NCBI RefSeq assembly: GCF_022869825.1
Contig: NZ_CP094971.1
Span: 683,501-747,500, forward strand
Direction: 5' to 3'
DNA from: Clostridium sp. BJN0001
Lineage (GTDB): Bacteria > Bacillota > Clostridia > Clostridiales > Clostridiaceae
DNA length: 64,000 nucleotides
The notes beneath the pieces were generated by a model. The model saw nothing but the letters and a program-made list of their open reading frames with translations. It was not told the origin of the DNA and did no database searches. Below, in pieces: positions 20,578 to 42,231 of the stretch. Each line of letters opens with the position of its first letter. Position 1 is the first letter of the stretch. The position numbers and the translations under genes are program-made.

Positions 20578-21582
20578 GTGTTTAATAATTCAATTATTTT
20601 AATAACAGGTGGGACAGGTTCTTTTGGACATAAGTTTGCTGAAAGAATTTTAAAGGAATATAACCCTAAAAAAATAATAATTTACTCACGAGATGAGTTT
20701 AAACAAGATAATATGGCAAAAGAGTTTAGACTTAAATATCCTGAAAAATATCAAAAATTAAGATTTTTTATTGGTGATGTAAGAGATAAAGAAAGACTTT
20801 ATAGGGCATTTAAAGATGTAGATTATGTAATTCATGCAGCAGCTATGAAACAGGTTCCTGCATGTGAATATAATCCGTTTGAAGCTATAAAAACTAATAT
20901 TCATGGTGCTCAGAATATAGTTGATGCTGCAATTGACTGTAATGTAAAAAAAGTAGTTGCACTTTCAACAGATAAGGCTGTTAACCCTATTAATTTATAT
21001 GGTGGTACTAAGCTTGTATCTGATAAATTATTTATATCAGGAAATGCGTATTCAGCAGGTCATGGAACAGTATTTTCTGTTGTAAGATATGGAAATGTTG
21101 CTGGAAGCAGGGGATCTGTAATACCATTTTTTAAATCGCTTCTTGAAAGCGGAAAAAAAGTTTTGCCAGTTACTGATTATAGAATGACAAGATTTTTTAT
21201 AACACTTGATCAAGGCGTAGATTTGGTATTTAAAGCTTTAAAAGAGTCAAAAGGCGGAGAAACTTATATTTCAAAAATTCCTTCATTTAAAATATCAGAT
21301 TTAGCTAAAGCTATGAATCCTGATGGGGATATGCAGGAAGTTGGAATAAGAGAAGGTGAAAAGCTTCATGAAGTCATGATAACTAGGGATGATTCAAGAA
21401 TGACTTATGAGTATGATAAGCATTATATAATTTATCCACATTTTAACTGGTGGAATTCACAGAAAAATATGACACCTGGTGGAAAACCTGTAGAAGAGGG
21501 ATTTGAATATAATTCAGCAACAAATAAAGAGTGGCTTTCTGTAGCTGACTTAAAAAAGATTTTAAATGACAGTGATTTTTAA
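20578..21582 (+). CDS. pseB: UDP-N-acetylglucosamine 4,6-dehydratase, PseB/FlaA1-like
   Basis: 334 residues of the extended short-chain dehydrogenase family. The NAD-binding motif is TGGTGSFG near the start; the active site shows STDKAVNPINLYGGTKL, with the Tyr-x3-Lys pair typical of PseB-type inverting dehydratases. It makes the 4-keto-6-deoxy intermediate at the start of pseudaminic acid synthesis. The start codon is GTG with GAGGTGA just upstream, overlapping the end of the preceding gene's stop. The aminotransferase (PseC) that normally follows is absent; an ATP-grasp gene is there instead. Legionaminic-type or other 6-deoxy sugar routes cannot be excluded. Confidence 0.88.
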   Translation: MFNNSIILITGGTGSFGHKFAERILKEYNPKKIIIYSRDEFKQDNMAKEFRLKYPEKYQKLRFFIGDVRDKERLYRAFKDVDYVIHAAAMKQVPACEYNPFEAIKTNIHGAQNIVDAAIDCNVKKVVALSTDKAVNPINLYGGTKLVSDKLFISGNAYSAGHGTVFSVVRYGNVAGSRGSVIPFFKSLLESGKKVLPVTDYRMTRFFITLDQGVDLVFKALKESKGGETYISKIPSFKISDLAKAMNPDGDMQEVGIREGEKLHEVMITRDDSRMTYEYDKHYIIYPHFNWWNSQKNMTPGGKPVEEGFEYNSATNKEWLSVADLKKILNDSDF

Positions 21583-21600
21583 TATTTGGAGAATAAAGAG

Positions 21601-22569
21601 ATGAATTTACTATTAACTTCTATAGGAAAAAGGGTACAGCTTATAAAACATTTAAAAAAAAATTTTAAAGTTATTGGTGCTGATGCAGGAGAATTGAATG
21701 CAGGAAGATATTTTGCAGATAAATTTTATAAAATACCAAAAGCAAATGAAGATACATATATAAATATGCTTTTAAAAATATGCAAAGAAGAAGATATAAA
21801 AGTTTTGATACCTTTATATGAAGGAGAATTTGAAAAACTTAGCGAAGCTAGAAAAGAATTTAAAAATATAGGAACACTACTTTTATTAAGTAGTAAAGAA
21901 ATATTAGATATATGTAAAGATAAAAAGAAGACATATACATTTTTTAAAAATTCAGATATAAAGTTACCTAAAGTATATAATGATGAAGAAATAGAAGGCT
22001 TAATACATAATAATAATTTTGATAAATTAAAATTTATTATAAAGCCAAGAGATGGTATGGGAAGCAGCAGCGTTTTTAAAGCTGAGAATAAAACTGAACT
22101 GATATTCTTCAAGAATTATGTAAAAAATTGTATTGTTCAAGAGTTTATATCAGGGGATGAATATACTGTTGATGTACTTGTAGATTTTAAAGGAAATCCT
22201 ATTTATATTGTTCCAAGAAAAAGAATTGAAATAAGAAGCGGTGAAGTTGTAAAGAGCGCTACTATAAAAGATAAACAGATAATAGATATGACATTAAAAG
22301 TTATAAAAAAATTAAATGAATTAAGAGATAAAGATGAAGTATCTAGTGTAGGCCCTCTTACAATACAGTTTATAAAGACATTTGATCAAAAGTTATTTCT
22401 TTTGGAAATAAATCCACGCTTTGGAGGTGGAGTACCACTTAGTTTTGAAGCGGGAGCTAACTATGGACAAAAGATATTTGATATGGTAATGGAAAAAAAG
22501 AGTGAATACTGCAGAGATTTTAATGAGAAGATTATGATTAGGTATGAGGAAGCTGTATTTTTAAATTAA
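21601..22569 (+). CDS. ATP-grasp domain enzyme (carbamoyl-phosphate synthase large-subunit-like)
   Basis: 322 residues. The N-terminal Rossmann-like pre-ATP-grasp segment begins MNLLLTSIGKRVQLIKHL. The ATP-grasp core has FIIKPRDGMGSSSVF, the nucleotide-binding IVQEFISGDEYTVDV, and the metal-binding LFLLEINPRFGGGVPLS. ATP-grasp enzymes form C-N or C-O bonds by an acyl-phosphate intermediate. In flagellar glycan clusters they may attach amino or acid groups to sugars, but the substrate is not known here. The ATG at 21601 is preferred over a TTG 15 bases upstream because GGAG (21588-21591) lies 9 bases before it. Confidence 0.82.
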   Translation: MNLLLTSIGKRVQLIKHLKKNFKVIGADAGELNAGRYFADKFYKIPKANEDTYINMLLKICKEEDIKVLIPLYEGEFEKLSEARKEFKNIGTLLLLSSKEILDICKDKKKTYTFFKNSDIKLPKVYNDEEIEGLIHNNNFDKLKFIIKPRDGMGSSSVFKAENKTELIFFKNYVKNCIVQEFISGDEYTVDVLVDFKGNPIYIVPRKRIEIRSGEVVKSATIKDKQIIDMTLKVIKKLNELRDKDEVSSVGPLTIQFIKTFDQKLFLLEINPRFGGGVPLSFEAGANYGQKIFDMVMEKKSEYCRDFNEKIMIRYEEAVFLN

Positions 22570-22659: not shown

Positions 22660-22703
22660 GAACTGAGATATAAAATTATGTTATAGAGGTGAATGTTAGA
22701 ATT

Positions 22704-28759: not shown

Positions 28760-30442
28760 ATGAAAATACTATATTTGATAGATCAATATAAACCAGAATA
28801 TTATTCTGGTGCTATAAAGTTTGCAGAAAATATTATAAATCATTTTGCAAATAACAATGAAATAATTATAATTTCATACTCTCAGAATATACATACTGAT
28901 GCAAAAAAGTTTTCGCAAATACTATATTGGAAGGAGCAGATTGATGGAATTAGTTGCATAAAATTTTATTTAAATAATAAGTATATTAATTATGAATTAT
29001 TAAATAATGAAATATATGAATTTGCTGTAAATTTAATAAACAAAATTGATCCAGACATTATTCATTTTTGTCATACAAGGAGAGTAGCGTCGTTTATAAA
29101 AGCAGCAATAGATTTAAATAAGAAATATTTAATTACATTTACTGATAATTTTTTTGTATGTCCCAATCTATTCTTATTTACTAAAGATAGTCAGATTTGT
29201 AATGAAAGGCATAAAGATTTAATATGTTCTAAAAAATGTAATTATTCATCAAAAATAATATCTGAAAATAAAAAAATTGTTGATAAATATGTAATAAATG
29301 CATCTGCACTTATTACACCATCTGAATTTCAAAAGAAAATATATGAAGAATATTTTAACAAAGAATTTATTGTTATAAACCATGGAAATTTAATACCAAA
29401 TAAAGAAATAAGACTGGATGATTATCCAAAACAAAAATTAATTTTTTCTTTTACTGCAAATAGCGAAGCACATAAAGGTTTAATGATAGCTGTTGCAGCA
29501 TTTAATAGTCTTACTAAAAATATTAATGCTGAACTTTATGTTTATGGATACTGTGATGATTCGATAAGACTGTTAAGCGGAAATAAAGTTATATTTAAAG
29601 GTCAATACAATAATAGTGAAGTTTCAAAAATTTTAAAAAATGTAGATTTTGTTTTATGTCCATCAATTTGGTATGAAAATTATCCATTTACTATTACAGA
29701 AGCTTTAGCAAATGATGTACCTGTAATTGCTAGTAATGAAGGCGGAATGAAAGAACTTGTAAAAAATTGTATAAATGGATTTACGTTTGAAGTTGGAAAT
29801 TATAAAGATTTAGCTAGAATTATAGAATTTTTATATCTTAATCAAAACGTTATTAAATTTTTAAAGACCAATATTAACAAGCAGCATATTCAAAGCATTG
29901 ATGATGAAATAGAAAGTTATGAGAATATATATAGTAAATGCTTAAATAATCAAGAAATAAAAATAGAAAAAAGTTCTATTTTAAGTTCTGTTTGGAAAGA
30001 AATGTTAATGAAAAAATATAGAAATATTAATTTGCAAAAATATAGACCAATAATTTATGATATAGCAAAAAAGTATAATTACTATATTAACGACGATAAA
30101 ATATACAGATTTATTTTAAGATTAAATAATATGGAACAATTATTACGAAATAAACATTTAAAATCATTAATTATATGGGGAACAGGAACATCTGCGAAAT
30201 TAACAATACAAATATTAAGAAAATTATATAAAGATATAAACATAGATTATGTAGTAGACAAATTTAAAGAAAAAGGTATTTTTGAAGATTTACAAGTTAA
30301 GAATGTCTCATATCTTCAAAAACATGATTTTAATTATGTTTTTATTTGTACTTCGCCAGGGAAAAAAGATGCAATAAAACTTATGGACAAGCTTGATAAG
30401 AAAATTAATAAAAATTATAATTTTGGAATATGTGTTGAATAA
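28760..30442 (+). CDS. Family 4 glycosyltransferase with C-terminal Rossmann-like module
   Basis: 560 residues. A GT-B transferase (about 1-390) begins MKILYLIDQYKPEYYSGAIKF. It has FVCPN and CNYSSK cysteines in the N-lobe, INHGNLIP, SFTANSEAHKGLM, and the donor site SIWYENYPFTITEALANDVPVIASNEGGM. A helical linker is followed by a C-terminal module (about 470-560: LIIWGTGTSAKLTIQ, DYVVDKFKEKG), again the shared Rossmann-like domain. GAGAGG precedes the ATG. Probably a glycan elongation enzyme; donor unknown. Confidence 0.82.
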   Translation: MKILYLIDQYKPEYYSGAIKFAENIINHFANNNEIIIISYSQNIHTDAKKFSQILYWKEQIDGISCIKFYLNNKYINYELLNNEIYEFAVNLINKIDPDIIHFCHTRRVASFIKAAIDLNKKYLITFTDNFFVCPNLFLFTKDSQICNERHKDLICSKKCNYSSKIISENKKIVDKYVINASALITPSEFQKKIYEEYFNKEFIVINHGNLIPNKEIRLDDYPKQKLIFSFTANSEAHKGLMIAVAAFNSLTKNINAELYVYGYCDDSIRLLSGNKVIFKGQYNNSEVSKILKNVDFVLCPSIWYENYPFTITEALANDVPVIASNEGGMKELVKNCINGFTFEVGNYKDLARIIEFLYLNQNVIKFLKTNINKQHIQSIDDEIESYENIYSKCLNNQEIKIEKSSILSSVWKEMLMKKYRNINLQKYRPIIYDIAKKYNYYINDDKIYRFILRLNNMEQLLRNKHLKSLIIWGTGTSAKLTIQILRKLYKDINIDYVVDKFKEKGIFEDLQVKNVSYLQKHDFNYVFICTSPGKKDAIKLMDKLDKKINKNYNFGICVE

Positions 30443-30466: not shown

Positions 30467-32779
30467 ATGTGGCAGAATGATCAAACATTATCAAAATATA
30501 AAGAACAGTTTAAAAAGTATAAATATATTAGCTTTGATATTTTTGATACACTTCTTTTAAGAAACTTATCAAAACCTACTGATATTTTTTTAAAAGTAGG
30601 AAGTAAAGCTAGAAAATGTGGATATTTAAATGAAAACATTGATAAATATGAGTTCAATAGAATAAGAATTTTAGCACAAAAGAAAGTACGTAATATGTGC
30701 AGAAAAATAGATAAAGAAATTACTCTTTTAGATATCTATAATGAAATGCCTAATAATATAGGAAATATGAAAGAGATTATGAAAATAGAAATCGAAGAAG
30801 AAAAAGAATTGACATATTTAAATCCTGTTATATATGACCTTCTAAAATTTTTAAAACAGAAGGGTAAAAAAATTTTTCTTATTTCTGATATGTATTTGAA
30901 TGCAAAAATTATAAAAGAAATTCTTCTTTATAATAATTTTGATTATACTAAAATTGATGGATTGTTTGTTTCTTGTGATGTTTCATTGAGTAAGAGTAAT
31001 GGAAAATTATTTAAATATGTTTTAGAAAAATATAAAATTAATGCTTCTGATATTATACATATTGGTGATAATTATAGTAAAGATATCCAAGGAGCACAAA
31101 AAGAATCAATAAAGACTATTTATTATAATCCTGTATCTAGAAAAGATAATACAATAGATTTTGAAAATTATATTTATAGAGACGTGCTACCTGAAATAAA
31201 ATCTTTAAGGAAAGTAGCTGGTAATTTAGCAGCGAAGTATGATAAAGATGAAATTTTTTGGTTTAAATTTGGGGCTGAAATATTTGGACCTGTTATTACA
31301 TTATTTTGTGATTATGTAATAAATGAAGCAAAGAAAAATGATATTAAAATGATTAGACCATTTATGAGAGAGGCTGTAACATTAATAGATGTTTTAAAGA
31401 AATCTGCTAGTAATATAGACTACAATTGTGATATTGAACCATTATATATATCAAGAAAAGTTACAATTTTACCATCATTTAAAGAAATTAATCAGCAGAA
31501 TTTAAACAAAATTTTTTATATTAAAAATATTTCATTTAAAGATGTAATAGATTTAATTGGTTTAAATAAAGAAAATATTAAGAAATATATATGTTATTAT
31601 GATAAACTTATTCGAGATATAAATAAAGAAAAATTAAATGAAATATCGTCATTTATACTTAATAATTATAAAAAGGAAATTAATGAAGAAATTTATAAGT
31701 CAAGAAAAATATTAAAAGAATACTTATACCAAGAAAAAATGAATAAAGGAAAATTGATTACAGTTGACTTTGGTGTAAAAGGTACAGTACAGGAAATTAT
31801 AGAAGATTTAATGGATAATGAAAGCATGATGCATATTGTAATGATATCAAGTGAGCATTTATATGATAAATTGGAAAAGGGAATAAACATTAATACTTTC
31901 TTAGGTTCATATGATGAAAATTTAGAATTATCTACTAATCTTCTTCAAAATTTTAAATTGGTAGTATTTGAAGATATAATGATGGATGAGAAAGGTTCAA
32001 CTGTTGGATATACTGATACAGCAGATAAAATAGCACCAAATCTTGGAATTAATATGGTTCCAAAATTGGAACTTAAATTAAAGAAAATTTTGAGAGAAGG
32101 TATATCGTGTTTTCAGAAGATTTATTATCAGAGCTTAAATAAAAAAAGAATTATAAATAATTTATATTTTAAAAAGAAGGATATTTTAAAAATATTAGCA
32201 AGAGTGATGTCTGTACCATCTAAAGAGGAAAGCCTCAGGCTTGGAAATTTATCTCATGAAAATAGTTTTGGAAGTACTTGTGTTGAAAAAATATGTAAAG
32301 AAACAGAAATTAATTTTTTAGAAAAAATGGATTTGGATGAATTTATTACACAGCAGAATGAAATTGGTGTAAAATGGCCAGAAGCAGTAATTACAATGAA
32401 GTATCCACAGTATTTGCAGAATAAAGCTATAATTAGTAGCAACACCCTTCCAATATATTATAAAGAAGCGTTAATTACTGCATTAAAGATAAAAGAAGAA
32501 GGAATTAACGATATTATTATATGGGGAGCAGGAGAAGTTGGTAAAGTGTGCATAGATGTATTTACAAATCAGAATATAAATATAAGATATATAATAGATA
32601 GTAAATCATGGCTATGGGATACTAAAATTTTTGGAATACCAATTAAATCTGCAGAATTTATAGCTGATATGTATAAAAATCAAAGTATAAATATATTAAT
32701 TTCGTCTTTTAGTTTTGCTGAGGATATTAAAAATTCTATAAGTAAGAAATTTAATAAGTTTAAAGTATATACTTTATAG
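30467..32779 (+). CDS. Large HAD-domain protein with C-terminal Rossmann-like module
   Basis: 770 residues. The N-terminal haloacid dehalogenase-type domain (about 15-240) has motif I ISFDIFDTLLLRN with both Asp, motif II LISDMYLN, and motif IV HIGDNYSKDIQGA. The long middle part (about 240-670), with PFMREAVTL and TVDFGVKGTVQEI, resembles the large multidomain HAD proteins (COG5610-like) of surface polysaccharide clusters. The C-terminal 95 residues carry the shared module (IIIWGAGEVGKV, IIDSKSW). It may be a phosphatase or phosphotransferase acting on a glycan intermediate; substrate unknown. TAGGAGA precedes the ATG. Confidence 0.72.
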   Translation: MWQNDQTLSKYKEQFKKYKYISFDIFDTLLLRNLSKPTDIFLKVGSKARKCGYLNENIDKYEFNRIRILAQKKVRNMCRKIDKEITLLDIYNEMPNNIGNMKEIMKIEIEEEKELTYLNPVIYDLLKFLKQKGKKIFLISDMYLNAKIIKEILLYNNFDYTKIDGLFVSCDVSLSKSNGKLFKYVLEKYKINASDIIHIGDNYSKDIQGAQKESIKTIYYNPVSRKDNTIDFENYIYRDVLPEIKSLRKVAGNLAAKYDKDEIFWFKFGAEIFGPVITLFCDYVINEAKKNDIKMIRPFMREAVTLIDVLKKSASNIDYNCDIEPLYISRKVTILPSFKEINQQNLNKIFYIKNISFKDVIDLIGLNKENIKKYICYYDKLIRDINKEKLNEISSFILNNYKKEINEEIYKSRKILKEYLYQEKMNKGKLITVDFGVKGTVQEIIEDLMDNESMMHIVMISSEHLYDKLEKGININTFLGSYDENLELSTNLLQNFKLVVFEDIMMDEKGSTVGYTDTADKIAPNLGINMVPKLELKLKKILREGISCFQKIYYQSLNKKRIINNLYFKKKDILKILARVMSVPSKEESLRLGNLSHENSFGSTCVEKICKETEINFLEKMDLDEFITQQNEIGVKWPEAVITMKYPQYLQNKAIISSNTLPIYYKEALITALKIKEEGINDIIIWGAGEVGKVCIDVFTNQNINIRYIIDSKSWLWDTKIFGIPIKSAEFIADMYKNQSINILISSFSFAEDIKNSISKKFNKFKVYTL

Positions 32780-32807: not shown

Positions 32808-33476
32808 ATGAGTAATATAATTTATAAAAGAGAAAAAAAAATAATGCATCTAGCAGAGGCTTTTTATACTAATGTAATAGTAAATCCGATACTTCCATTA
32901 GTAGCTAAAACGCCTATAAAACCTAATTACATAACTATTTCTAATATATTAATTTCAGTTTTTATCTATTATTTAGCTTTTATGAATAATCTTACGATTG
33001 TTGCAGTTTTAATTCAGTTATATTTATTTTTTGATGTTTTAGATGGAAATTTAGCAAGATATATAAATGCTAGATCTAAACTTGGAGCTAAGCTAGATTT
33101 TTGGAGTGATAGGTTTTTTTACAATTTGATTTTTATTTCTATAGGGTATGGTAGAGTTAATATACTATTATTATTAGCAGTAGTAGTATGCGTAAATTTA
33201 TATGCAATTATTCCAACGTATTACATAGTTCCTAATCTTAGAAAGTTAAAAAATATAAAGAGATTTGGCTTTAAAAAATATATGATGAGTAAGGGATACA
33301 TAATTGGAATGGATCTTGGCACAGTAGATTTTTTACTTACTTTCTTTTTAATAACTAGATTAATATCATTAACAAATCTATTTATACTTATAACAGCAGG
33401 GTACATTATAGATTTAATGTATAGAATTATAGAACTTAAAATAAACCAAAAGATAAGTGGTGGGAGAAATGTTTAA
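32808..33476 (+). CDS. CDP-alcohol phosphatidyltransferase family membrane enzyme
   Basis: 222 residues with about six hydrophobic segments. It holds the complete family signature D-x2-DG-x2-AR-x8-G-x3-D-x3-D: Asp76, Asp79-Gly80, Ala83-Arg84, Gly93, Asp97 and Asp101. Such enzymes transfer a phospho-alcohol or phosphatidyl group from a CDP-linked donor to a second alcohol. Lipid synthases of this family are not normally encoded in flagellar loci. The nearby TarI- and TarJ-like genes suggest that CDP-ribitol may be the donor; that is inference. Its end overlaps the next gene by 8 bases. Confidence 0.87.
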   Translation: MSNIIYKREKKIMHLAEAFYTNVIVNPILPLVAKTPIKPNYITISNILISVFIYYLAFMNNLTIVAVLIQLYLFFDVLDGNLARYINARSKLGAKLDFWSDRFFYNLIFISIGYGRVNILLLLAVVVCVNLYAIIPTYYIVPNLRKLKNIKRFGFKKYMMSKGYIIGMDLGTVDFLLTFFLITRLISLTNLFILITAGYIIDLMYRIIELKINQKISGGRNV

Positions 33477-34572
33477 TGTAATTATTTTTGGAACTGGAAA
33501 GAGTAGAAAAATAGTTGAAAGCGGTTTTAATGATGATGTTAATGTAATTGCATATTTAGATAATAATACTGACAAGTGGAATCAAAAAATTAATGGCAAG
33601 TATATTTTGAATCCTGAAAATATAAAAAATATGGAATATGATTACGTGATAATAGCAAGCCAGTATAATGATATAATTTATAATCAGCTTATTAATTTAG
33701 GAGTAGATATAAAAAAGATATTTCAGCATAATATTTTTTTTATGTCAATATGGAATGATATATGTTATAGAATGAAAACAATAGAAAATATGAATAAAGA
33801 TGAACTTAATCTTATAATTACTGGAATATCATATGCTCAAAAGGGAATAAAAACTGATAAACTTCGAAAAAAATCTTTTTCACTTGCATGTTTTAGTCAG
33901 GATTTATTTTATGATTATACTCAAGTAAAGTGGATTATTAATAATTTAAGTGATAATATTCAGAATCTTAAATATGTAATAATCGGATTATCCTATTATT
34001 CTTTTGAATACGATATGTCGTTATCATCTCAAAAATATAGGACGTTATTATATTATGATGCTATTAAAGAAAGTCATCACTTGAAAAATACAGATTATTT
34101 ATTAGAAGGAATGAATATAACTAAAAAAATAGCAAAGAATATTTTCTCCTATGATAAAGATGGACGTTTAGATAAGATTGACTTTATGTTTACTAAGAAA
34201 AGAATTTATTTACTTAGTGATGAAAAAGGAAAAGAGCAGGCTGAGCGTGACTGCAATAAAAATTATCCAGAGACAGTTAAAGAAAATACAAAAATTTTTA
34301 AAGATTATCTTACATTATTAAAAGATAATAATATAAAACCTATTGTTGTTGTTTTCCCAGTTTCAAAATACTATTCAAAATATTTTTCAAGAAGAGTGAA
34401 AAATGAATTTGAAAACATACTTAATGAAGTTAGAAAAGATTATGATTTTCAGCTGATAGATTATTTTGATAGCGATGAATTTACTGATGACGATTTTTAT
34501 GATGTATCTCATCTTAATAATGATGGAGCGTTAAAGTTTACTGAGATACTTAATAATATTATTAAGTGGTAG
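33469..34572 (+). CDS. Rossmann-module protein fused to an SGNH/DltD-like domain
   Basis: 367 residues. The N-terminal 95 carry the shared module (VIIFGTGKSRKIVE, AYLDNNTDKWN). The rest resembles an SGNH-hydrolase/acyltransferase fold: a first strand IITGISYAQKG in place of the usual Gly-Asp-Ser, then KPIVVVFPVSKYY, and a C-terminal Asp-x2-His pair in YDVSHLNNDGALKF. SGNH enzymes often O-acetylate or deacetylate sugars. The nucleophile Ser would be that in TGISYA, which is uncertain. Start at 33469, preceded by GTGGGAG, rather than a GTG 12 bases earlier. Possibly a glycan O-acyltransferase. Confidence 0.6.
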   Translation: MFNVIIFGTGKSRKIVESGFNDDVNVIAYLDNNTDKWNQKINGKYILNPENIKNMEYDYVIIASQYNDIIYNQLINLGVDIKKIFQHNIFFMSIWNDICYRMKTIENMNKDELNLIITGISYAQKGIKTDKLRKKSFSLACFSQDLFYDYTQVKWIINNLSDNIQNLKYVIIGLSYYSFEYDMSLSSQKYRTLLYYDAIKESHHLKNTDYLLEGMNITKKIAKNIFSYDKDGRLDKIDFMFTKKRIYLLSDEKGKEQAERDCNKNYPETVKENTKIFKDYLTLLKDNNIKPIVVVFPVSKYYSKYFSRRVKNEFENILNEVRKDYDFQLIDYFDSDEFTDDDFYDVSHLNNDGALKFTEILNNIIKW

Positions 34573-34583
34573 GAAGAAATAGT

Positions 34584-35255
34584 ATGATAAAAGTTATAAT
34601 TTTTGATTTAGATGACACCCTTTACTATGAAAAACAATTTGTTTTATGTGGTTTTAAAAATGTTTGTATATATTTAAGCAAAAAATACAATAAAGATTTA
34701 AACAAGCTTTATAAAGATACAATAGATATCTTAGATAAAGACGGAAGAGGAAAGATTTTTGATTTTTTATGTAAGAAAAATAATTTTAAAGAAGATATAA
34801 ATGATCTCGTTTTAATTTATAGAAATACAAAACCGACTTTAACTTTATATGAAGACAGTATTAAAATTTTTAAATACTTAAAAAATAACAATATAAAAAC
34901 AGGCATTATTACAGATGGATGTGCATTAGTTCAATGGAACAAAATAAAATCTTTAAAGATTGATAAAAAAGTGGACAAGGTAATTGTAACAGATGATTAT
35001 GATGGAAACTTTTCAAAGCCTTCTACAAAATCATATCTAGAAATGGCAGAATATTTTAAAGTAAATCCTAAGGAATGTATTTATATTGGAGATAATCCTA
35101 AAAAGGACTTTATAGGAGCAAAAAGCATTGGTATGAAAACTGTACGAATAATAAGAGAAAAAGGAGATCATGTGTCTGATATAGAAGATAATAAGCATGA
35201 GGCAGATAAAAAAATTAAAAATCTTGAAGAAATTAAAGATATAATAAAATTGTAA
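34584..35255 (+). CDS. HAD-superfamily phosphatase
   Basis: 223 residues. Motif I IIFDLDDTLYYE, motif II GIITDG, Lys in NFSKPSTKSY, and motif IV IYIGDNPKKDFIGAK define a HAD class with an alpha-helical cap. It probably dephosphorylates a small phosphosugar or phospho-alditol. It lies 15 bases upstream of the TarI-like gene. AGGAAG lies 7 bases before the ATG at 34584, favouring it over a GTG 18 bases upstream that overlaps the previous gene. Confidence 0.82.
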   Translation: MIKVIIFDLDDTLYYEKQFVLCGFKNVCIYLSKKYNKDLNKLYKDTIDILDKDGRGKIFDFLCKKNNFKEDINDLVLIYRNTKPTLTLYEDSIKIFKYLKNNNIKTGIITDGCALVQWNKIKSLKIDKKVDKVIVTDDYDGNFSKPSTKSYLEMAEYFKVNPKECIYIGDNPKKDFIGAKSIGMKTVRIIREKGDHVSDIEDNKHEADKKIKNLEEIKDIIKL

Positions 35256-35270
35256 AGGAGATTTTAGCAT

Positions 35271-35978
35271 ATGAATATAGGTATAATTCTGGCAGGTGGC
35301 AGTGGAACCAGAATGGGAAATCAGAGTAAACCAAAGCAATTTATTGATGTTTATGGAAAGCCACTTATTATTTATACATTAGAAGCTTTTGAAAACAATG
35401 AATACATAGATGAAATTGTTATATCATGCCATAAGGATTGGATAGATAATGTTAAAATATGGTGCAGAAAATATGAGATTACAAAAGTAAAATATATAGT
35501 AGAAGGCGGAAATACAAGGCAGGAATCTTCATATAATGCATTAAAATGCCTTGATAAAGAATTAAGTGATGATGACATTGTAGTTATTCATGATTCTGCA
35601 AGACCTCTTATTACACCACAAATTATAAAAAACAATGTTATCATGTCAAAGGAGTATGATGCTGTTGATACAGTAATTCATTCTGATGATACTGTAATAA
35701 GAAGTATTGATGATAAAAGAATAGAAAGTGTACCAACACGAAAAGAGTTATATTTAGGACAAACACCACAAAGTTTTAAATATTCACTTATAAAAAATGC
35801 TCATATAGAAGCAGAAAAGAATGGTATTTATAATGCTACAGATGATTGTCAGCTTGTTCTTAAGCTTAATAAACAGGTATTTTTAGTAGATGGTGATAAA
35901 CTAAACTTAAAGATTACACGATCTGAAGATTTAACTCTTTTTAAAGCTATACTTAAGATGGGTAGAATAGGAGGCTAA
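35271..35978 (+). CDS. tarI: Ribitol-5-phosphate cytidylyltransferase, TarI-like (IspD family)
   Basis: 235 residues. The nucleotide-binding loop GIILAGGSGTRMG with downstream KPKQF, then VIHDSARPLITP and the ATDDCQLV segment, identify the IspD/TarI/Acs1 family. It would make a CDP-activated alditol from CTP. The next gene is a TarJ-like reductase, the classic TarI-TarJ pair for CDP-ribitol, which favours TarI over the isoprenoid enzyme IspD. AAGGAG precedes the ATG. Confidence 0.83.
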   Translation: MNIGIILAGGSGTRMGNQSKPKQFIDVYGKPLIIYTLEAFENNEYIDEIVISCHKDWIDNVKIWCRKYEITKVKYIVEGGNTRQESSYNALKCLDKELSDDDIVVIHDSARPLITPQIIKNNVIMSKEYDAVDTVIHSDDTVIRSIDDKRIESVPTRKELYLGQTPQSFKYSLIKNAHIEAEKNGIYNATDDCQLVLKLNKQVFLVDGDKLNLKITRSEDLTLFKAILKMGRIGG

Positions 35979-35981
35979 AAT

Positions 35982-37037
35982 ATGCTCTCCAGAAATATAA
36001 AAATTGTTTCCAAGGAAATATTTGAAATGTATGTTGAGGACACAACTCTTAAACAGGGGCAGTGTCTTATAAGAGTAAATAAAGGTGCTATATGCAGAGC
36101 GGATATTCGTTATTATAAAGGAGAACGTGAAGAAAAGATATTAGGATTAAAATATCCAATGAGTCTTATTCATGAAGCTATTGGAACAGTTTTAAAAAGC
36201 TATGATAATACATATAAAGCAGGGGATAGAGTTATTCTTATTCCCAATTTATGTAGATGCGTTAATGAAGAAAAATGTAAAAATAAAGTTTGCAAAAATA
36301 AGTTTTTAGGTGAAAATTACTGCAAATATGCAAAGTTTGCATCTAGCAATTGCGATGGATTTTCAAAAGAAATAATTAGCTGGCCTAAAAGTAATATTAT
36401 AAAAATTGACGAAAGTATATCAGATGATGTTGCTGTATTTTCAGAACTTATATCTGTTTGTGAATCTATTTTAAGAAGAATTAAAGATATAGACAGTTCT
36501 TTTGAAACTGTATGTATTTTTGGAGATGGAATTGTAGGATTTATACTTTCAAATATATTACATAATATTTATAAGAAAAAAGTAATTATAGTAGGAAAAC
36601 ACGAAGATAAAATGATGAAATTTCCATGTGAGCATTATTTAAAAATAGATAAAACAGAAAAATTAAAAAATCAAAAGATTGATGTCTTTGTTGAATGTGT
36701 TGGCGGAAAAGGTATGAATAGTGCAGTGCAGAGTATTTTAGATGTTATAAATCCTGGAGGAAAGATTGTTTTATCTGGTGTAAGTGAAGAAAAACTTTTA
36801 ATAAATAGTAGAAGTATACTTGAAAAGGGTCTTGTACTTACAGGAAGTACAAGAAGTAACATATCTGATTTTAAAAAAGCTACAGAGTATCTTAAAAATA
36901 AAGAATTTTATAAATATATAAAAATTCTTAATCTTGGTGAAAAAGATATAAGAAGTGTTTCAGATTATTATAATGCTTTTTTCGATGCATGTACCGAAAA
37001 AAGATTAGGAAAATATATTCTTAATTTTATATTTTAA
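35982..37037 (+). CDS. tarJ: Ribulose-5-phosphate reductase, TarJ-like (zinc alcohol dehydrogenase family)
   Basis: 351 residues of the medium-chain dehydrogenase fold. Catalytic zinc ligands are suggested by the Cys in GAICRADIRYY and the His-Glu in LIHEAIG. A cluster of cysteines (CRCVNEEKCKNKVC) marks the structural zinc site. The Rossmann part reads VCIFGDGIVGFI. TarJ reduces ribulose-5-phosphate to ribitol-5-phosphate with NADPH for TarI. The 3-base gap to tarI indicates coupled expression. In wall teichoic acid loci these genes accompany TarL-type polymerases, but none is present in the window. Confidence 0.83.
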   Translation: MLSRNIKIVSKEIFEMYVEDTTLKQGQCLIRVNKGAICRADIRYYKGEREEKILGLKYPMSLIHEAIGTVLKSYDNTYKAGDRVILIPNLCRCVNEEKCKNKVCKNKFLGENYCKYAKFASSNCDGFSKEIISWPKSNIIKIDESISDDVAVFSELISVCESILRRIKDIDSSFETVCIFGDGIVGFILSNILHNIYKKKVIIVGKHEDKMMKFPCEHYLKIDKTEKLKNQKIDVFVECVGGKGMNSAVQSILDVINPGGKIVLSGVSEEKLLINSRSILEKGLVLTGSTRSNISDFKKATEYLKNKEFYKYIKILNLGEKDIRSVSDYYNAFFDACTEKRLGKYILNFIF

Positions 37038-37053
37038 AATGAGAGGGATAAAT

Positions 37054-38118
37054 ATGAAAATATTAACAGTAGTTGGAGCAAGACCGCAGTTTATTAAAGC
37101 AGCTATGGTATCAAACAAAATCAGAAAGAAAAACACTGAAATTTTAGTTCATACAGGGCAACACTATGATGCTGATATGTCAGATGTTTTTTTTGATGAA
37201 CTTGGAATTCCAAAGCCAGATTATAATTTGGGAATAGGTTCTTCTATGCATGGACATCAGACTGGGAATATGCTTATAAAACTTGAAGATATTTATTTAA
37301 AAGAGAAACCGGATGCTGTTTTAGTTTATGGAGACACAAATTCAACACTAGCAGGAGCACTCTGTGCAAGTAAACTTTTAATTCCAGTAGCTCATGTAGA
37401 AGCAGGTCTTAGAAGTTTTAATAAAAGAATGCCAGAGGAGCAGAATAGAATAGTAGCAGATCATTTATCAGATATTCTTTTTACTCCGACGAATGCAGCT
37501 GTATCAAATTTAAAAAATGAAAATATTATAAATGGTATTTATAATGTTGGGGATGTGATGTTTGATGCAATTAATTTTTTTAATCATAAGGCAGAAAATA
37601 TATCTCAAATAAAGCAAATATTAGATCTTGATAAAAAAGATTACATTTTGTCAACAATACATAGAGCTGAAAATACAAATGATCCACAAAAGCTATCTAA
37701 AATAATTTATGCATTAAATGAATGCGGACAAAGAGTTATTTTTCCACTTCATCCCAGAACTAAAAAATTTATAGAAAAATATAATATTATATTAGCAGAT
37801 AATATAGAAATAATAGATCCAGTAGGATACTTAGAGATGATTTTACTTGAAAAAAATGCTTCAAAGATTGTTACTGATAGTGGTGGCGTTCAAAAAGAAG
37901 CTTATTTTTTAAAAAAGCCATGTATTACAGCTAGAGACGAAACTGAATGGATAGAAACAATAAATGATGGCTGGAACATGATTGTTGGAAGTAATAGCAA
38001 TAAAATTTTAGATGCTATACAAAACTTCAATCCAGATGGTACTACTCATAATATATTTGGATATGGAAATGCATCAGATTTAATATGCAATATTTTACTT
38101 AAAAAAATAAAGAGTTGA
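37054..38118 (+). CDS. wecB: UDP-N-acetylglucosamine 2-epimerase (non-hydrolysing, WecB-like)
   Basis: 354 residues, the normal size. Signature regions are ILTVVGARPQFIKAA, VLVYGDTNSTLAGALCA, VEAGLRSFNKRMPEEQNR, STIHRAENT, and TDSGGVQKEAYFLKKP. It interconverts UDP-GlcNAc and UDP-ManNAc. A non-hydrolysing epimerase would supply UDP-ManNAc for a glycan, rather than free ManNAc. The preceding genes are tarI-tarJ, and a DUF115 gene follows. GAGAGGG lies 6 bases before the ATG at 37054; an ATG 15 bases upstream lacks this. Confidence 0.92.
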   Translation: MKILTVVGARPQFIKAAMVSNKIRKKNTEILVHTGQHYDADMSDVFFDELGIPKPDYNLGIGSSMHGHQTGNMLIKLEDIYLKEKPDAVLVYGDTNSTLAGALCASKLLIPVAHVEAGLRSFNKRMPEEQNRIVADHLSDILFTPTNAAVSNLKNENIINGIYNVGDVMFDAINFFNHKAENISQIKQILDLDKKDYILSTIHRAENTNDPQKLSKIIYALNECGQRVIFPLHPRTKKFIEKYNIILADNIEIIDPVGYLEMILLEKNASKIVTDSGGVQKEAYFLKKPCITARDETEWIETINDGWNMIVGSNSNKILDAIQNFNPDGTTHNIFGYGNASDLICNILLKKIKS

Positions 38119-38202
38119 AATATTATTTATTAAGGATATTGTGAAAAAAATAATATAAAAAATCTAAGTCTTAAAATTATTTAGAATAAGAGGTAATAAT
38201 AT

Positions 38203-39426
38203 ATGCCAATTCAATTTGAAAAAGCAGAAAATGGACTTTTAACTGCTAAATATAAAGGAAAATATATTCATAGCAGATATAATCCGCAAAGAGAAGCCGA
38301 AGTTTTTGTTAAGAATAATATTAAATATTTTAATGGAAAAACTATTGCTTTATATGGTATTGGTTTAGGATATCATATAAAAGAAATGTTGAAATTAATT
38401 ACTGAAGATTCTGCTGTTTATGTTTTTGAAATGAGCGATGAATTAATTAAAGAAGCAAAAATTGTTAATCCAGATATTTTTAATTCTGATAATATAAAAA
38501 TAATAGATGGTAAAAGCATAAATTTTTACCAAGAGTTAGTAAGCGCAATTGAAGAAGCTGGAAACTTAGTTGTACATAAACCATCACTAGAAATGATAAG
38601 AGAATCTTTTCCTAAATTATTTAATGTTATAAATGATTTTTCTAGCATTAGAAATTTTTCCACTTTTCATAATGAAAATTATATGCTTGGAGAAGCAAAT
38701 AGAAAAGTCAATATATCTAAAGAATATCCTGATATAAGTATTTTAATTGATAAATTAAGTGAAAATAATAAGCCATTTATAATTGCATCTGCAGGACCAT
38801 CGCTTGATTATGAACTTAAAACTTTAGAAAAATATAGAGATGAATTTACAGTTATTTCTGTAGGAAGTTCACTTAGGACTTTGGTTAATAACAATATTCT
38901 GCCAGATGCAATAGTTATTATAGATCCAAAACAAATTATAGAAAAACAGTTTATAGGTTTTGAAAATCTGTCTATTCCATTATGTTTTCCAGCATCAGCA
39001 TCAAAATGGGCAGTAGAAGTCTATAATGGACCTAAATATATGTTTAATAAATGTGAAGAAAATACGCAAATCCTTGTTGGTGGTACAGTAGCACTTTCAG
39101 CACTTGATATTGCAAAAAAAAGTTGTGCAAAAAAGATAATTTTTATTGGACAAGATTTTGCATATCTTGGTGAAAAATCTCATACTGCAACATATGAGAA
39201 AATGTATGGGTTTAAAGATAGTGAGAAAACAAGGCATAAAATGCGTATAGTTCAAGGTGTTTTAGGTAATAATCTTGAAACATCTGATGGTTATCTTGTT
39301 TTTAAGCATAAAGTAGAATATTTCATACATAACTGTAAAGATATAGAATTTATCAATTGCAGCAGAGGAGCCGCAATTGAAGGAACTAAATTTATGACTT
39401 TAGAGGAATTTATAAATAAGTTATGA
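38203..39426 (+). CDS. Motility accessory factor, DUF115/Maf-type flagellin glycosyltransferase (second)
   Basis: 407 residues, 170 fewer than the homologue at 18835. It holds the DUF115 core: KPFIIASAGPSLDYELKTL, NNILPDAIVIIDPKQ, LVGGTVALSALDIAKKS and FIGQDFAYLG. The N-terminal part starts with an RYNPQREAEVFV motif, also present as KYNQKREIKKFV in the other copy. The C-terminal helical extension of the other copy is absent. It sits directly upstream of the nonulosonic acid synthase genes, so it is a good candidate for the enzyme that transfers their product to flagellin. AGAGGTAA precedes the ATG. Confidence 0.87.
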   Translation: MPIQFEKAENGLLTAKYKGKYIHSRYNPQREAEVFVKNNIKYFNGKTIALYGIGLGYHIKEMLKLITEDSAVYVFEMSDELIKEAKIVNPDIFNSDNIKIIDGKSINFYQELVSAIEEAGNLVVHKPSLEMIRESFPKLFNVINDFSSIRNFSTFHNENYMLGEANRKVNISKEYPDISILIDKLSENNKPFIIASAGPSLDYELKTLEKYRDEFTVISVGSSLRTLVNNNILPDAIVIIDPKQIIEKQFIGFENLSIPLCFPASASKWAVEVYNGPKYMFNKCEENTQILVGGTVALSALDIAKKSCAKKIIFIGQDFAYLGEKSHTATYEKMYGFKDSEKTRHKMRIVQGVLGNNLETSDGYLVFKHKVEYFIHNCKDIEFINCSRGAAIEGTKFMTLEEFINKL

Positions 39427-39444
39427 TTATGTTGAGGTGAATTT

Positions 39445-40506
39445 ATGAATAGATCATTTTATATAGGAAATAAAAAAGTAGGAGAAGGTGAAAAAACATT
39501 TATAATTGCTGAAATGTCAGCAAATCATCTTCAAGACTATGAAAGAGCAGTAAAAATTATAGAAGAGGCAAAAAAAGCTGGTGCAGATGCGATAAAGCTT
39601 CAGACATATACTCCAGATACAATTACACTTGACTGTGATAACAAGTATTTTAAGATAAATCAAGGAACTATATGGGATGGAACAACACTTCATAAGCTCT
39701 ATGAAAAAGCATATACACCATGGGAGTGGCAGCCTAAGCTTAAAAAGATTGCAGAGGATTTAGGACTTATATTTTTTTCATCTCCATTTGATAATACGGC
39801 AGTTGATTTTTTAGAAGACATATCTGTTCCTGCATATAAAATTGCATCGTTTGAACTTACTGATATTCCATTTGTAGAGTATATTGCTTCAAAAGGAAAG
39901 CCTGTTATAATGTCAACAGGAATTGCAGAGATCTCTGATATAAAAAATGCATTAGACGCATGTAAAAGGATGAACAATTATGATGTAGCATTATTAAAAT
40001 GTACATCAGCTTATCCAGCACCTGTAGATGAAATTAATCTAAAGACCATGGAGAATATGAGAGAGACATTTAATGTTACGTCAGGACTTTCAGATCATAC
40101 TTTAGAAAATTCAGTTTCAGTTGCAGCTGTAGCACTTGGAGCTACAATAATAGAAAAACATATGACTTTAAAAAGAAGCGATAAAGGCCCTGATAGTGAG
40201 TTTTCTATGGAGCCTCACGAATTTAAAGATATGGTTAAAAGCATAAGAACGGTTGAAAAAGCGCTTGGCTCTGTTACTTATGATCTTTCTTATAAACAGC
40301 AAAAAGAAAGAGAACATTCAAGAAGTCTTTTTGTAGTTAAAGATATAAAAAAAGGTGAAGCTTTTACAAATGATAATGTAAAAAGTATAAGACCAGGTTT
40401 TGGACTTAAAACAAAATACATTACTGATATTTTAGGAAAAAAATCAGATAGAGATATACAAAAAGGAACTCCAATGAGCTGGAATTTAATTGAGAGGGAT
40501 GAATAA
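39445..40506 (+). CDS. pseI: Nonulosonic acid synthase, PseI/NeuB family
   Basis: 353 residues: a TIM-barrel NeuB domain followed by a C-terminal SAF (antifreeze-like) domain (about 290-353, with RSLFVVKDIKKGEAF and SIRPGFGL). The start FIIAEMSANHLQDYERA is of the pseudaminic acid synthase type rather than the AEIGVNH seen in sialic and legionaminic synthases. It condenses a 6-carbon amino sugar with phosphoenolpyruvate. Other landmarks are FFSSPFDNTAVDFLE, ALLKCTSAYPAP, LSDHTLENSV and EKHMTL. It is followed by the cytidylyltransferase and PseG genes. Confidence 0.92.
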   Translation: MNRSFYIGNKKVGEGEKTFIIAEMSANHLQDYERAVKIIEEAKKAGADAIKLQTYTPDTITLDCDNKYFKINQGTIWDGTTLHKLYEKAYTPWEWQPKLKKIAEDLGLIFFSSPFDNTAVDFLEDISVPAYKIASFELTDIPFVEYIASKGKPVIMSTGIAEISDIKNALDACKRMNNYDVALLKCTSAYPAPVDEINLKTMENMRETFNVTSGLSDHTLENSVSVAAVALGATIIEKHMTLKRSDKGPDSEFSMEPHEFKDMVKSIRTVEKALGSVTYDLSYKQQKEREHSRSLFVVKDIKKGEAFTNDNVKSIRPGFGLKTKYITDILGKKSDRDIQKGTPMSWNLIERDE

Positions 40507-40507
40507 A

Positions 40508-41173
40508 ATGAAGATTTTATGTATTGTGCAGGCAAGAATGGGTTCTGAAAGACTGCCTAAAAAAGTTATGAGAGAAATTAACGGAAAGCCTATGATTTAT
40601 TATACGCTAAATGCTCTAAAAAAAAGCAGATACATAGATGATATTATACTCGCAACTTCTACACTCAAAATAAATGATAAGCTTGCAGAATACGCAGAAA
40701 AAGCAGGCTTTAAAGTGTTTAGAGGATCTGAAGACAACGTTCTTAAACGATATAAGGATGTAGCAGATAAATATGAAGGCGATGTGATAATAAGAGTTAC
40801 TGGAGATTGTCCTCTTATAAATCCTGTAATTGTAGATAATACTATTACAAAATATCTTATGTACGATTACGATTATGTAAGACTTGATGTACCAAATACA
40901 TTCCAGAGAGGGTTTGATACAGAAGTATTTTCTAAAAAAGCACTTGCTAAAGTGTATAACATAGTATGCTCAAAAGAGAATATAGATAGAGAAGATTTTA
41001 AGCCGTTTAGGGAGCATGTTACATTTTATATTTATAATCACAAAGATGATTTTAAAGTAGGCGTTGTAAAAGGCGAAGGAAAGTATTTTGAAAACAAAGA
41101 TATAAATTATAGCGTTGATAGAATTGAAGATTTTGAAAGAGTAAAAAATATATTAGAAAAAAGAGATATTTGA
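40508..41173 (+). CDS. pseF: CMP-nonulosonic acid cytidylyltransferase, PseF/SpsF-like
   Basis: 221 residues. The N-terminal nucleotide-binding loop VQARMGSERLPKKVM and ILATSTLKINDKL, VTGDCPLINP are typical of SpsF-type cytidylyltransferases. It would activate the PseI product with CTP for transfer by a Maf protein. The start ATG at 40508 is one base past the pseI stop, with GAGAGGG 9 bases upstream; an ATG at 40499 is directly against that site and a TTG further upstream overlaps pseI. SpsF is another valid name. Confidence 0.85.
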   Translation: MKILCIVQARMGSERLPKKVMREINGKPMIYYTLNALKKSRYIDDIILATSTLKINDKLAEYAEKAGFKVFRGSEDNVLKRYKDVADKYEGDVIIRVTGDCPLINPVIVDNTITKYLMYDYDYVRLDVPNTFQRGFDTEVFSKKALAKVYNIVCSKENIDREDFKPFREHVTFYIYNHKDDFKVGVVKGEGKYFENKDINYSVDRIEDFERVKNILEKRDI

Positions 41174-41205
41174 TGAGCTTTTTAGTTGATGAATAGGTGA
41201 TAGAA

Positions 41206-42231
41206 ATGAAAATATTTATTCGTACAGATGGTGGAAGAGAAATAGGTCTTGGGCATATTATGAGAATGCTTGTCCTTGCAGATGAACTGAGAAAATCGAA
41301 TGAAGTTATTTTTATCTGCAGAAATTCAAAAAATAATAAGTTTGAAGCAGGAATTGAAAAAATTTATCAGAATGATTTTAAAATACTATTTATAAAAGAA
41401 AAAGATTATATTAACGATATAATTTCTTTACAAAAAGAATACAAAGCAGATTTGCTTATTACTGATAGCTATGATGTTTCTGAATCTTATTTTAATGTAT
41501 TAAAGCCATATTTTAGATTTACAGGGTATGTTGATGATGTTAACAAGATGAAGATGAATGTTGATTTTATAATAAATCAGAATATAAATGCGAAAGAACT
41601 TGATTATAGTAGTAATATTAATCTTGAAACTAAGCTATTTTTAGGCCCAAAGTATTGCATGATAAGAAAAGAATTTAAAGAGGCTTTTAAATTAAAAGTG
41701 GTTAAAGATGAAGTAAGTGATATTATGCTTACATTAGGTGGCATGGATGATGATAATAATACAGGAAAGATATTAAAAATGATTAAAGACATCAATAAAA
41801 ATATTCATGTTGTAATTGGTTCTGCATTTAGTGAAGAAACTATTAAAAGTATAGAAAATTTAAGCATAGGGCATGAAAATATTTATTTATATAAGAATGC
41901 TAATATGGCAGATATTATGAGAAAATGTGACGTTGCCATATCATCATGTGGTTCAACAATATATGAACTATGTTCAATGAATGTTATACCAATTGGTATT
42001 ATTGTAGCTGAAAATCAGAGAAAAACAGCTGAATTTATGAAAAGTAATGAACTTATAGCTAAAATATTTAATGCTCAAAATTTAAATAGTCATGATTTAA
42101 TTAACTTTTTAAATAACCTCTTAAATAATAAAAGTAAAAGGTTAAAAATTTTTAACAATCAGAAAAATATAGTAAATATAAATGGTGCCAAACTTTTAGT
42201 TGATAAAATAAATAAAATTAAATTAAAGTAA
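41206..42231 (+). CDS. pseG: UDP-sugar hydrolase, PseG-like (SpsG)
   Basis: 341 residues of the GT-B-like PseG family. The N-terminal IFIRTDGGREIGLGHIMRM includes the catalytic His of the GxGHxxR motif. Further motifs are LLITDSY, GYVDDVNKM, GPKYCMIRKEF and a C-terminal SSCGSTIYELCSM. In the pseudaminic pathway PseG removes UDP from the 2,4-diacetamido sugar before condensation by PseI. It ends just where a candidate sigma-28 promoter for yjfB begins. AGGTGAT precedes the chosen ATG; a GTG 9 bases upstream is less likely. Confidence 0.88.
   Translation: MKIFIRTDGGREIGLGHIMRMLVLADELRKSNEVIFICRNSKNNKFEAGIEKIYQNDFKILFIKEKDYINDIISLQKEYKADLLITDSYDVSESYFNVLKPYFRFTGYVDDVNKMKMNVDFIINQNINAKELDYSSNINLETKLFLGPKYCMIRKEFKEAFKLKVVKDEVSDIMLTLGGMDDDNNTGKILKMIKDINKNIHVVIGSAFSEETIKSIENLSIGHENIYLYKNANMADIMRKCDVAISSCGSTIYELCSMNVIPIGIIVAENQRKTAEFMKSNELIAKIFNAQNLNSHDLINFLNNLLNNKSKRLKIFNNQKNIVNINGAKLLVDKINKIKLK

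What the first reader, a model, noticed from the sequence alone, without database searches (positions are those of the whole stretch)
32808..37037. CDP-alditol module inside a flagellin glycosylation island
A membrane CDP-alcohol phosphotransferase with a perfect catalytic motif, an SGNH-like protein, a HAD phosphatase, and TarI- and TarJ-like enzymes stand together, all in the same direction with short gaps or overlaps. TarI-TarJ normally make CDP-ribitol for wall teichoic acid, but here there is no TarL/TagF polymerase and no teichoic acid primase, and all neighbours are flagellar glycan genes. The proposal is that ribitol-phosphate (or a related phospho-alditol) is added to a flagellin glycan or its precursor by the CDP-alcohol enzyme. 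Phosphate-linked flagellin glycans are known in Clostridioides difficile, but with a different gene set. This is the strongest candidate in the window for an undescribed system.
Basis: partly seen in the sequence, partly recalled or inferred. Interest (0 to 1): 0.8.

Follow-up and report, generated by a model that had tools for sequence, protein, structure and literature searches.

The report
Ribitol-phosphate module in flagellar sugar island
A Clostridium-like bacterium carries, inside the gene island that decorates its flagella with sugars, the enzymes that make activated ribitol next to an unusual membrane enzyme that probably hands the ribitol phosphate on, a job that related bacteria leave to a quite different enzyme in cell-surface gene clusters.

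Summary
The block is real: five intact same-strand genes (CDP-alcohol phosphotransferase, SGNH protein, HAD, TarI, TarJ) inside a fliD-to-flgB flagellar glycosylation island. TarI and TarJ match solved TarI1/TarJ1 best, and the genome has a separate IspD, so CDP-ribitol synthesis is likely. New here: in the family, 22 other TarI-TarJ places were read; 20 have a TagF-type PF04464 transferase within one gene, one has LicD, none has this CDP-alcohol enzyme. The window's genome has no PF04464 match. Relatives of the CDP-alcohol enzyme recur in nonulosonate loci (7 of 8 read, one of them weakly; flagellar genes visible in 3), beside varying nucleotidyltransferases, and their tree follows the partner type. 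Best reading: a CDP-alcohol-superfamily ribitol-phosphate transferase replaces TagF and decorates a flagellin glycan or its precursor (about 0.5). The acceptor is unproven; lipid or soluble products remain possible. HAD tracks an ATP-grasp gene and the SGNH family is common in Clostridium, so neither need belong to the module. Ribitol genes in enterobacterial islands, and tagD plus a CDP-alcohol enzyme in a Geobacillus island, were already reported as predictions, so this is a new variant of a known kind.

The parts
32808..33476 (+). CDP-alcohol phosphotransferase, 222 aa, proposed CDP-ribitol phosphotransferase
33469..34572 (+). Two-domain protein: N-terminal C2185-like Rossmann domain, C-terminal SGNH hydrolase/acyltransferase fold; perhaps a general clostridial modifier rather than part of the module
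34584..35255 (+). HAD-IA phosphatase-like protein; may act on the transferase product or belong to the nonulosonate/ATP-grasp branch
   Evidence: PF13419 94.7 bits; TIGR02253 122.8 bits, below cut-off 169.75; relatives seen only together with the ATP-grasp relative
35271..35978 (+). TarI-like D-ribitol-5-phosphate cytidylyltransferase
   Evidence: NF001183 234.4 bits, cut-off 166; best PDB match 6xhp TarI1; separate IspD elsewhere in genome
35982..37037 (+). TarJ-like ribulose-5-phosphate reductase
   Evidence: best PDB match 6xh9 TarJ1, 163 bits, next 48.3
20578..22569 (+). PseB (20578-21582) and PylC-like ATP-grasp (21586-22569)
   Evidence: TIGR03589 535.4 bits, cut-off 407.75; PF02655/PF21360
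22689..32779 (+). FkbM methyltransferase, glycosyltransferases and a HAD-containing 770-aa protein upstream of the block
   Evidence: Pfam
37054..42231 (+). WecB-type 2-epimerase, Maf-domain protein, PseI, PseF-like, PseG downstream of the block
   Evidence: TIGR00236, TIGR03586, TIGR03590 over cut-off; PseF-like (TIGR03584 41.3 bits) below cut-off 205.7; Maf by PF01973
15049..18335 (+). FliS, FliD and first flagellin: left border of the island
   Evidence: PF02561, PF02465/PF07195, PF00669/PF00700
42489..44439 (+). Second flagellin and two rod proteins (FlgB/FlgC by order, inferred): right border of the island
   Evidence: PF00669/PF00700, PF00460, PF06429

Best explanation
TarJ reduces ribulose 5-phosphate to ribitol 5-phosphate and TarI couples it to CTP, giving CDP-ribitol (inferred from family). 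The membrane CDP-alcohol phosphotransferase then takes the place that TagF/TarL-type enzymes hold in related bacteria: it moves ribitol phosphate from CDP-ribitol, on the cytoplasmic face, to the flagellin glycan or to a precursor of it (inferred). The result would be a flagellin glycan of nonulosonate and other sugars carrying a ribitol-phosphate group (+214 Da). HAD and SGNH would trim or further modify the glycan and may not be essential. Shown here: gene content, family assignments, partner swap, and phylogenetic tracking. Not shown: any activity, the acceptor, and the alditol's identity.
For: 1) TarI/TarJ have solved TarI1/TarJ1 as best matches, with a true IspD elsewhere (227.9 bits for TIGR00453; 154.1 for NF001183, cut-off 166). 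2) Partner swap: TarJ at E 1e-30 in 22 of 206 family genomes, 23 places. In the 22 places other than the window's, TarI is adjacent in 22; PF04464 stands within one gene in 20 (18 of 20 scanned by Pfam; 2 more, L112 and L113, by phmmer); LicD in 1 (L110); neither seen in 1 (L108); a relative of the window's CDP-alcohol enzyme in 0 of 22 (phmmer, 50 bits, 12-19 kb each). The window's genome has 0 PF04464 and is the 1 of 206 with this CDP-alcohol enzyme at E 1e-15. 3) Two non-homologous reductases: L010 and L052 have the CDP-alcohol gene directly before a TarI/IspD-type plus short-chain-dehydrogenase fusion, so CDP-alditol synthesis seems to have been assembled beside this enzyme twice. 4) Tree: all 8 TarI/J-linked rows lie in one clade of 30 rows (98/96; 22 rows unlabelled), the fusion-linked rows in another (100/91, with L012); the three labels together need 2 changes, the minimum, 0 of 200 shuffles as low. 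7 of the 8 TarJ links rest on equal contig lengths. 5) Setting: of 8 relatives' loci read, 7 hold nonulosonate-type genes (L009, L011, L012, L045, L046, L053; L052 more weakly), and flagellar genes are visible in L045, L046 (FliS) and L053 (flagellin; Maf-like, 88 bits).
Against: No activity or glycan data. The nearest named CDP-alcohol families use inositol phosphate or lipid acceptors, and the protein is a membrane enzyme, whereas Maf meets flagellin in the cytoplasm (passage of PMC13317340). One relative (L010) lies outside any nonulosonate or flagellar locus in the 15.6 kb read. In the L010 and L052 fusions the IspD model scores higher than the ribitol model (196.8 and 191.4 against 167.5 and 176.5; all over cut-off), so their alditol is unsure. 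A LicD protein 240 kb away could be the real CDP-ribitol user. L009, L011, L045, L046 and L053 have MobA-like nucleotidyltransferases instead, so the family as a whole is not tied to ribitol, and the MobA label alone needs 2 changes on the tree. 14 of the 43 database relatives form a distant group with no contig-length link to TarJ.
Confidence: 0.5

Rival explanations
1. The CDP-alcohol enzyme makes a lipid: CDP-ribitol plus diacylglycerol (as in choline phosphotransferases), or CDP-diacylglycerol plus ribitol phosphate followed by HAD dephosphorylation (as in phosphatidylinositol phosphate synthesis).
Confidence: 0.17
2. DIPPS-like route: CDP-ribitol is joined to an alcohol or sugar phosphate, HAD removes the outer phosphate, and a soluble phosphodiester results, as a precursor or a solute.
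For: IPCT-DIPPS is among the best folds; HAD in the same gene run; the MobA-like neighbour in L011 scores 48.4 bits against the IPCT-DIPPS model (cut-off 580).
Against: No HAD relative was seen in L010, L012, L052 and L053 (15.6, 20.6, 5.6 and 8.3 kb read), and where present it comes with the ATP-grasp gene; NF041135 is far from met (23 bits, cut-off 580).
Confidence: 0.13
3. CDP-ribitol from TarI/TarJ feeds the distant LicD protein or another envelope polymer, and the CDP-alcohol enzyme has an unrelated substrate.
For: One LicD at 473162 in a polysaccharide-like cluster, read by eye; in relative L110 LicD stands next to TarI-TarJ.
Against: 240 kb apart; TarI is 1.8 kb from the CDP-alcohol gene in one gene run; CDP-alcohol and TarJ proteins seem to share other contigs and their clades track.
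Confidence: 0.1
4. The alditol is not ribitol but a relative (for example arabinitol, xylitol or erythritol phosphate), with the same logic.
For: Only family-level evidence for substrate; TarI is about 40% and TarJ about 30% identical to the solved ones, judged roughly from the alignments (not computed).
Against: TarI and TarJ both point to ribitol and stand together in all 22 other places read.
Confidence: 0.1

Closest known systems
TarI-TarJ-TarL / TagF wall teichoic acid pathway
   Same: TarI and TarJ, adjacent, making CDP-ribitol
   Different: No PF04464 match in the genome; a CDP-alcohol superfamily enzyme instead; flagellar island instead of envelope locus
Archaeal/bacterial IPCT-DIPPS and archaetidylinositol phosphate synthases (AF2299)
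   Same: Cytidylyltransferase plus CDP-alcohol phosphotransferase; best fold matches
   Different: Alditol instead of inositol (inferred); none of the curated models is met; no lipid gene seen around
C. difficile type A flagellin glycan (CD0240-CD0244) and P. aeruginosa PAO1 cluster
   Same: Phosphoserine-phosphatase-like and phosphocholine-cytidylyltransferase-like proteins needed to add a phosphodiester-linked group to a flagellin sugar (PMC4441256, passages read)
   Different: Phospho-N-methylthreonine, not alditol; glycerophosphotransferase-like CD0244 instead of a CDP-alcohol enzyme; no TarJ mentioned in the passages read
Geobacillus thermoglucosidans DSM 2542 flagellin island with tagD and pgs (PMC5109656, passages read)
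   Same: CDP-alditol cytidylyltransferase beside an enzyme named phosphatidylglycerophosphate synthase in a flagellin island
   Different: Glycerol instead of ribitol; authors suggested a phospholipid derivative; relation of that Pgs to this family not tested
Enterobacterial flagellin island type 12 (ribitol genes, 2 strains; PMC4875605, section 8 read)
   Same: Ribitol biosynthesis genes in a flagellin glycosylation island
   Different: Transferase not named in that section; the genes were not examined here
Clostridium flagellar hypervariable region flgB-fliD (PMC13317340, abstract, passages and part 1 of section 18 read)
   Same: Same place, Maf and CMP-Pse genes; PseC outside the island as reported for C. 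beijerinckii
   Different: Main text has no occurrence of 'ribitol'; its supplements were not seen

Membership tests
CDP-alcohol phosphotransferase superfamily | PF01066 over cut-off and D..DG..AR.{8}G...D...D motif | tested here: met
   52.2 bits vs 22; motif complete in the ORF; its D, G, A, R positions D76, D79, G80, A83, R84, G93, D97, D101 invariant in the 30 rows of A1
CDP-alcohol phosphotransferase superfamily | superfamily fold | tested here: met
Archaetidylinositol / phosphatidylinositol phosphate synthase | curated NCBIfam score | tested here: not met
   69.1 vs 180 and 48.2 vs 170 bits
IPCT-DIPPS | curated NCBIfam score NF041135 | tested here: not met
   23 vs 580 bits
TarI | NF001183 over cut-off, better than IspD model | tested here: met
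   234.4 vs 166; IspD model 187.7 vs 181.3; own IspD shows the reverse
TarJ | closest solved relative is TarJ; stands with TarI | tested here: met
   6xh9 163 bits, next 48.3; no NCBIfam model over its cut-off among those listed
TarJ / TarI | enzymatic activity on ribulose-5-P / ribitol-5-P | not testable with these tools
   needs assay
Wall teichoic acid pathway | TagF/TarL/TagB-type PF04464 transferase | tested here: not met
   0 in the genome at E 0.001
Wall teichoic acid pathway | TagA/WecG glycosyltransferase nearby | tested here: not met
   one copy, at 2017226, 1.3 Mb away
C. difficile type A flagellin modification | glycerophosphotransferase-like CD0244 | tested here: inconclusive
   no PF04464 in the genome, but CD0244 itself was not fetched or compared
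C. difficile type A flagellin modification | CD0241-CD0243 orthologues | not tested
   sequences not fetched
Clostridium flagellar hypervariable region | lies between fliD and flgB with Maf and NulO genes | tested here: met
   flgB itself named only by rod domain PF00460 and order
SGNH hydrolases | SGNH fold with catalytic Ser and D-x-x-H | tested here: met

The most novel reading that the evidence does not exclude
A clade of CDP-alcohol-superfamily enzymes is a new class of ribitol-phosphate transferase, a non-homologous replacement of TagF/TarL, and together with MobA-partnered sister clades forms a patchy but phylum-wide way of putting phospho-alditols or phospho-cyclitols on flagellin nonulosonate glycans.
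Probability: 0.38. Interest if true: 0.68.

Novelty: new variant of a known kind. Interest (0 to 1): 0.52.

Why it matters
The CDP-ribitol users known to me (recalled, not searched) belong to the PF04464 and LicD/fukutin-type families. A CDP-alcohol-superfamily user would be a third, unrelated solution, and would give flagellin glycans a charged phospho-alditol group. It also offers a simple test set: the same TarI-TarJ pair with two non-homologous transferases in related bacteria, so genome content would predict where the ribitol goes.

Tried and rejected
Chance clustering: rejected by equal-length contigs, the clade-tracking tree and repeated loci. TarI as a misread IspD: rejected by the model contrast. 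Teichoic acid locus: rejected by absence of PF04464. Viral or plasmid origin: no relative found in viral contigs (pattern-limited) or plasmids. Acceptor-phosphate arginines of PIP synthase (PMC4634129, two passages read): I wanted to test them, but the distant relatives read looked by eye like PgsA-type and other CDP-alcohol enzymes, not PIP synthases, so it was dropped.

Rows dropped or used: eight loci served as close relatives. L038-L041 are short versions of L052, L045, L046 and L053. L047-L049 (60-62 bits) were fetched; L047 had two neighbours scanned and served as an outgroup row, L048 and L049 were not followed. L013-L036 were left out as distant. Searches covered 22 and 10 genomes, many seen before, and gave no new locus. 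In the genome searches the first look passed only part of its candidates to scoring (for example 14 of 22). Contig-length matching used the listed best 120 of 265 TarJ hits and 120 of 214 SGNH hits (119 and 118 lengths entered; the window's own rows and one row without a length left out). L051 and L068 were fetched and not examined. The fold search lists no LicD or TagF chain; this was not pursued.
Full report
What is there. The five ORFs reported are intact and on one strand. They sit in a longer same-strand gene run between FliS-FliD-flagellin on the left and a second flagellin and rod proteins on the right, which is the place of the Clostridium flagellar hypervariable region described in PMC13317340 (abstract, found passages and part 1 of section 18 read). 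The run holds PseB, PseI and PseG over their curated cut-offs, a PseF-like gene under it, a WecB-type epimerase, two Maf-domain proteins and several glycosyltransferases. No DegT/PseC-type gene lies in the window; the two strong DegT hits are elsewhere in the genome, and PMC13317340 reports an outlying PseC for C. beijerinckii. G+C is 25.5% in the block, 24.6% in the island and about 30% in the flagellar flanks.

The enzymes. The cytidylyltransferase passes the ribitol-5-phosphate model by 68 bits and its best solved relative is TarI1; the genome's own IspD shows the reverse ranking. The dehydrogenase's best solved relative is TarJ1, by a wide margin. The CDP-alcohol enzyme is one of three PF01066 matches in the genome; the other two score higher and are presumably the usual phospholipid enzymes (not checked). 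Its model (pLDDT 90) is closest to AF2299 and the archaeal IPCT-DIPPS, but none of the curated subfamily models is met.

Partner swap. TarJ was found at E 1e-30 in 22 of 206 family genomes (23 places). All 22 places other than the window's were read, 12-19 kb each. TarI is next to TarJ in 22 of 22. A PF04464 transferase stands within one gene of the pair in 20: 18 of 20 scanned by Pfam and 2 of 2 more by phmmer. L110 has LicD beside the pair and a weak PF04464-like hit (51 bits) 5 kb off; L108 has neither. None of the 22 shows a relative of the CDP-alcohol enzyme (phmmer with the window's protein, 50 bits). The window is the only one of the 206 genomes with that enzyme at E 1e-15, and it has no PF04464 match. 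So the usual CDP-ribitol user is missing and a different CDP-alcohol user stands in the same gene run.

Relatives of the CDP-alcohol enzyme. They are rare: 44 protein clusters, the window's included; 2 of 391 class genomes and 7 of 398 phylum genomes, the window's genome counted in each and three of the seven only distant; and four close loci among 28 in named genomes. Eight close loci were read: L009, L010, L011, L012, L045, L046, L052, L053. Six hold clear nonulosonate genes (PseB and/or PseI relatives); L052, a 5.6-kb contig, has only a PseF-like gene (114-116 bits to the window's; below every curated cut-off shown) and a DegT gene; L010 has none. L045 and L046 (sister genomes) carry FliS, and L053 a flagellin and a Maf-like protein. 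L009 and L011 are near relatives too, so independent lineages number about six. L010 lies among tRNA-synthetase and folate genes and a glycosyltransferase. Beside the enzyme stand different nucleotidyltransferases: a TarI/IspD-dehydrogenase fusion in L010 and L052 (both models passed, the IspD one with the higher score); MobA-like proteins in L011, L045 and L053 by Pfam and in L009 and L046 as their close relatives; a nucleotidyltransferase-choline-kinase-like fusion and a TarI-like protein below its cut-off, 2.6 and 4.2 kb away, in L012. In the tree the eight TarI/J-linked rows fall in one supported clade of 30 rows, the other 22 being unlabelled, and the fusion-linked rows in another; MobA-linked rows fall in two places. 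Seven of the eight TarJ links rest on equal contig lengths in the protein database, an indirect sign with a strong control that does not prove adjacency. The TarJ tree needs three label changes for the same rows (7.2 in shuffles, 0 of 500 as low), so TarI-TarJ may have been joined to this enzyme more than once or lost in places.

HAD and SGNH. HAD relatives appear in L009, L011, L045 and L046, each time with the ATP-grasp relative; neither was seen in the other four loci, two of which are short contigs. HAD may therefore serve the nonulosonate branch. The SGNH protein has 214 homologues (120 listed), many named as Clostridium, while the CDP-alcohol enzyme was found in 1 of 206 family genomes; the two sets were not compared genome by genome. 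Its model (pLDDT 93) is an SGNH hydrolase/acyltransferase with an extra Rossmann domain like 2g6t.

How it most likely works, and how sure. CDP-ribitol synthesis is likely (about 0.85); its use by the CDP-alcohol enzyme is likely (about 0.7); delivery to a flagellin glycan or its precursor is plausible (overall about 0.5). These are judgements, not computed values. The chemistry has a precedent in kind in the C. difficile type A glycan, where a phosphatase-like and a cytidylyltransferase-like protein are needed to add a phosphodiester-linked group (PMC4441256, PMC8861647, passages read).

Print. Ribitol genes were listed for two enterobacterial strains (PMC4875605, section 8 read), and tagD with pgs for one Geobacillus strain, read by the authors as pointing to a lipid (PMC5109656, passages). 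No paper in the held library has both 'CDP-ribitol' and 'flagellin', 'CDP-ribitol' and 'CDP-alcohol', or 'CDP-alcohol phosphotransferase' and 'ribitol'. Three papers hold 'flagellin glycosylation' and 'ribitol phosphate' and one holds all five broader terms; their ribitol passages concern teichoic acids or a reference title on an O-antigen. The one with 'CDP-alcohol', 'flagellin' and 'glycosylation' is a Pantoea association study whose passages place the CDP-alcohol gene in another cluster. PMC4875605 and PMC5109656 use other words and were reached by other routes, so these zero counts do not rule out further reports. Subscription papers and supplements were not searchable.

Noticed in passing
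22689-23687, 23775-25043, 25140-26867, 26969-28372, 28760-30442, 30467-32779, 33469-34572: Seven island proteins of different catalytic type seem to share an appended Rossmann-like domain (C2185/PglD_N-like), N-terminal in four and C-terminal in three. phmmer in an 11-row set links four firmly, 30467 and 28760 more weakly, and 26969 no better than control segments.
   Followed up: partly
28375-28731: A GT2-type ORF of only 118 aa covering the first two thirds of the domain profile; looks truncated.
   Followed up: partly
21586-22569: PylC-like ATP-grasp gene next to PseB; its relatives pair with the HAD relatives in four distant nonulosonate loci, perhaps an unassigned nonulosonate step.
   Followed up: partly
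L011:3485-8557: Second CDP-alcohol enzyme, second nucleotidyltransferase and an asparagine-synthase-like gene in the same nonulosonate locus.
   Followed up: no
L012:13240-14847: Nucleotidyltransferase fused to a choline-kinase-like domain near the CDP-alcohol gene, hinting at a CDP-choline-like donor.
   Followed up: no
L053:1116-2756: Cytidylyltransferase fused to an aldo/keto reductase beside the CDP-alcohol gene, about 5 kb from a flagellin.
   Followed up: no
L064:9070-9909: The genome's only LicD match, in a polysaccharide-like cluster 240 kb away.
   Followed up: partly
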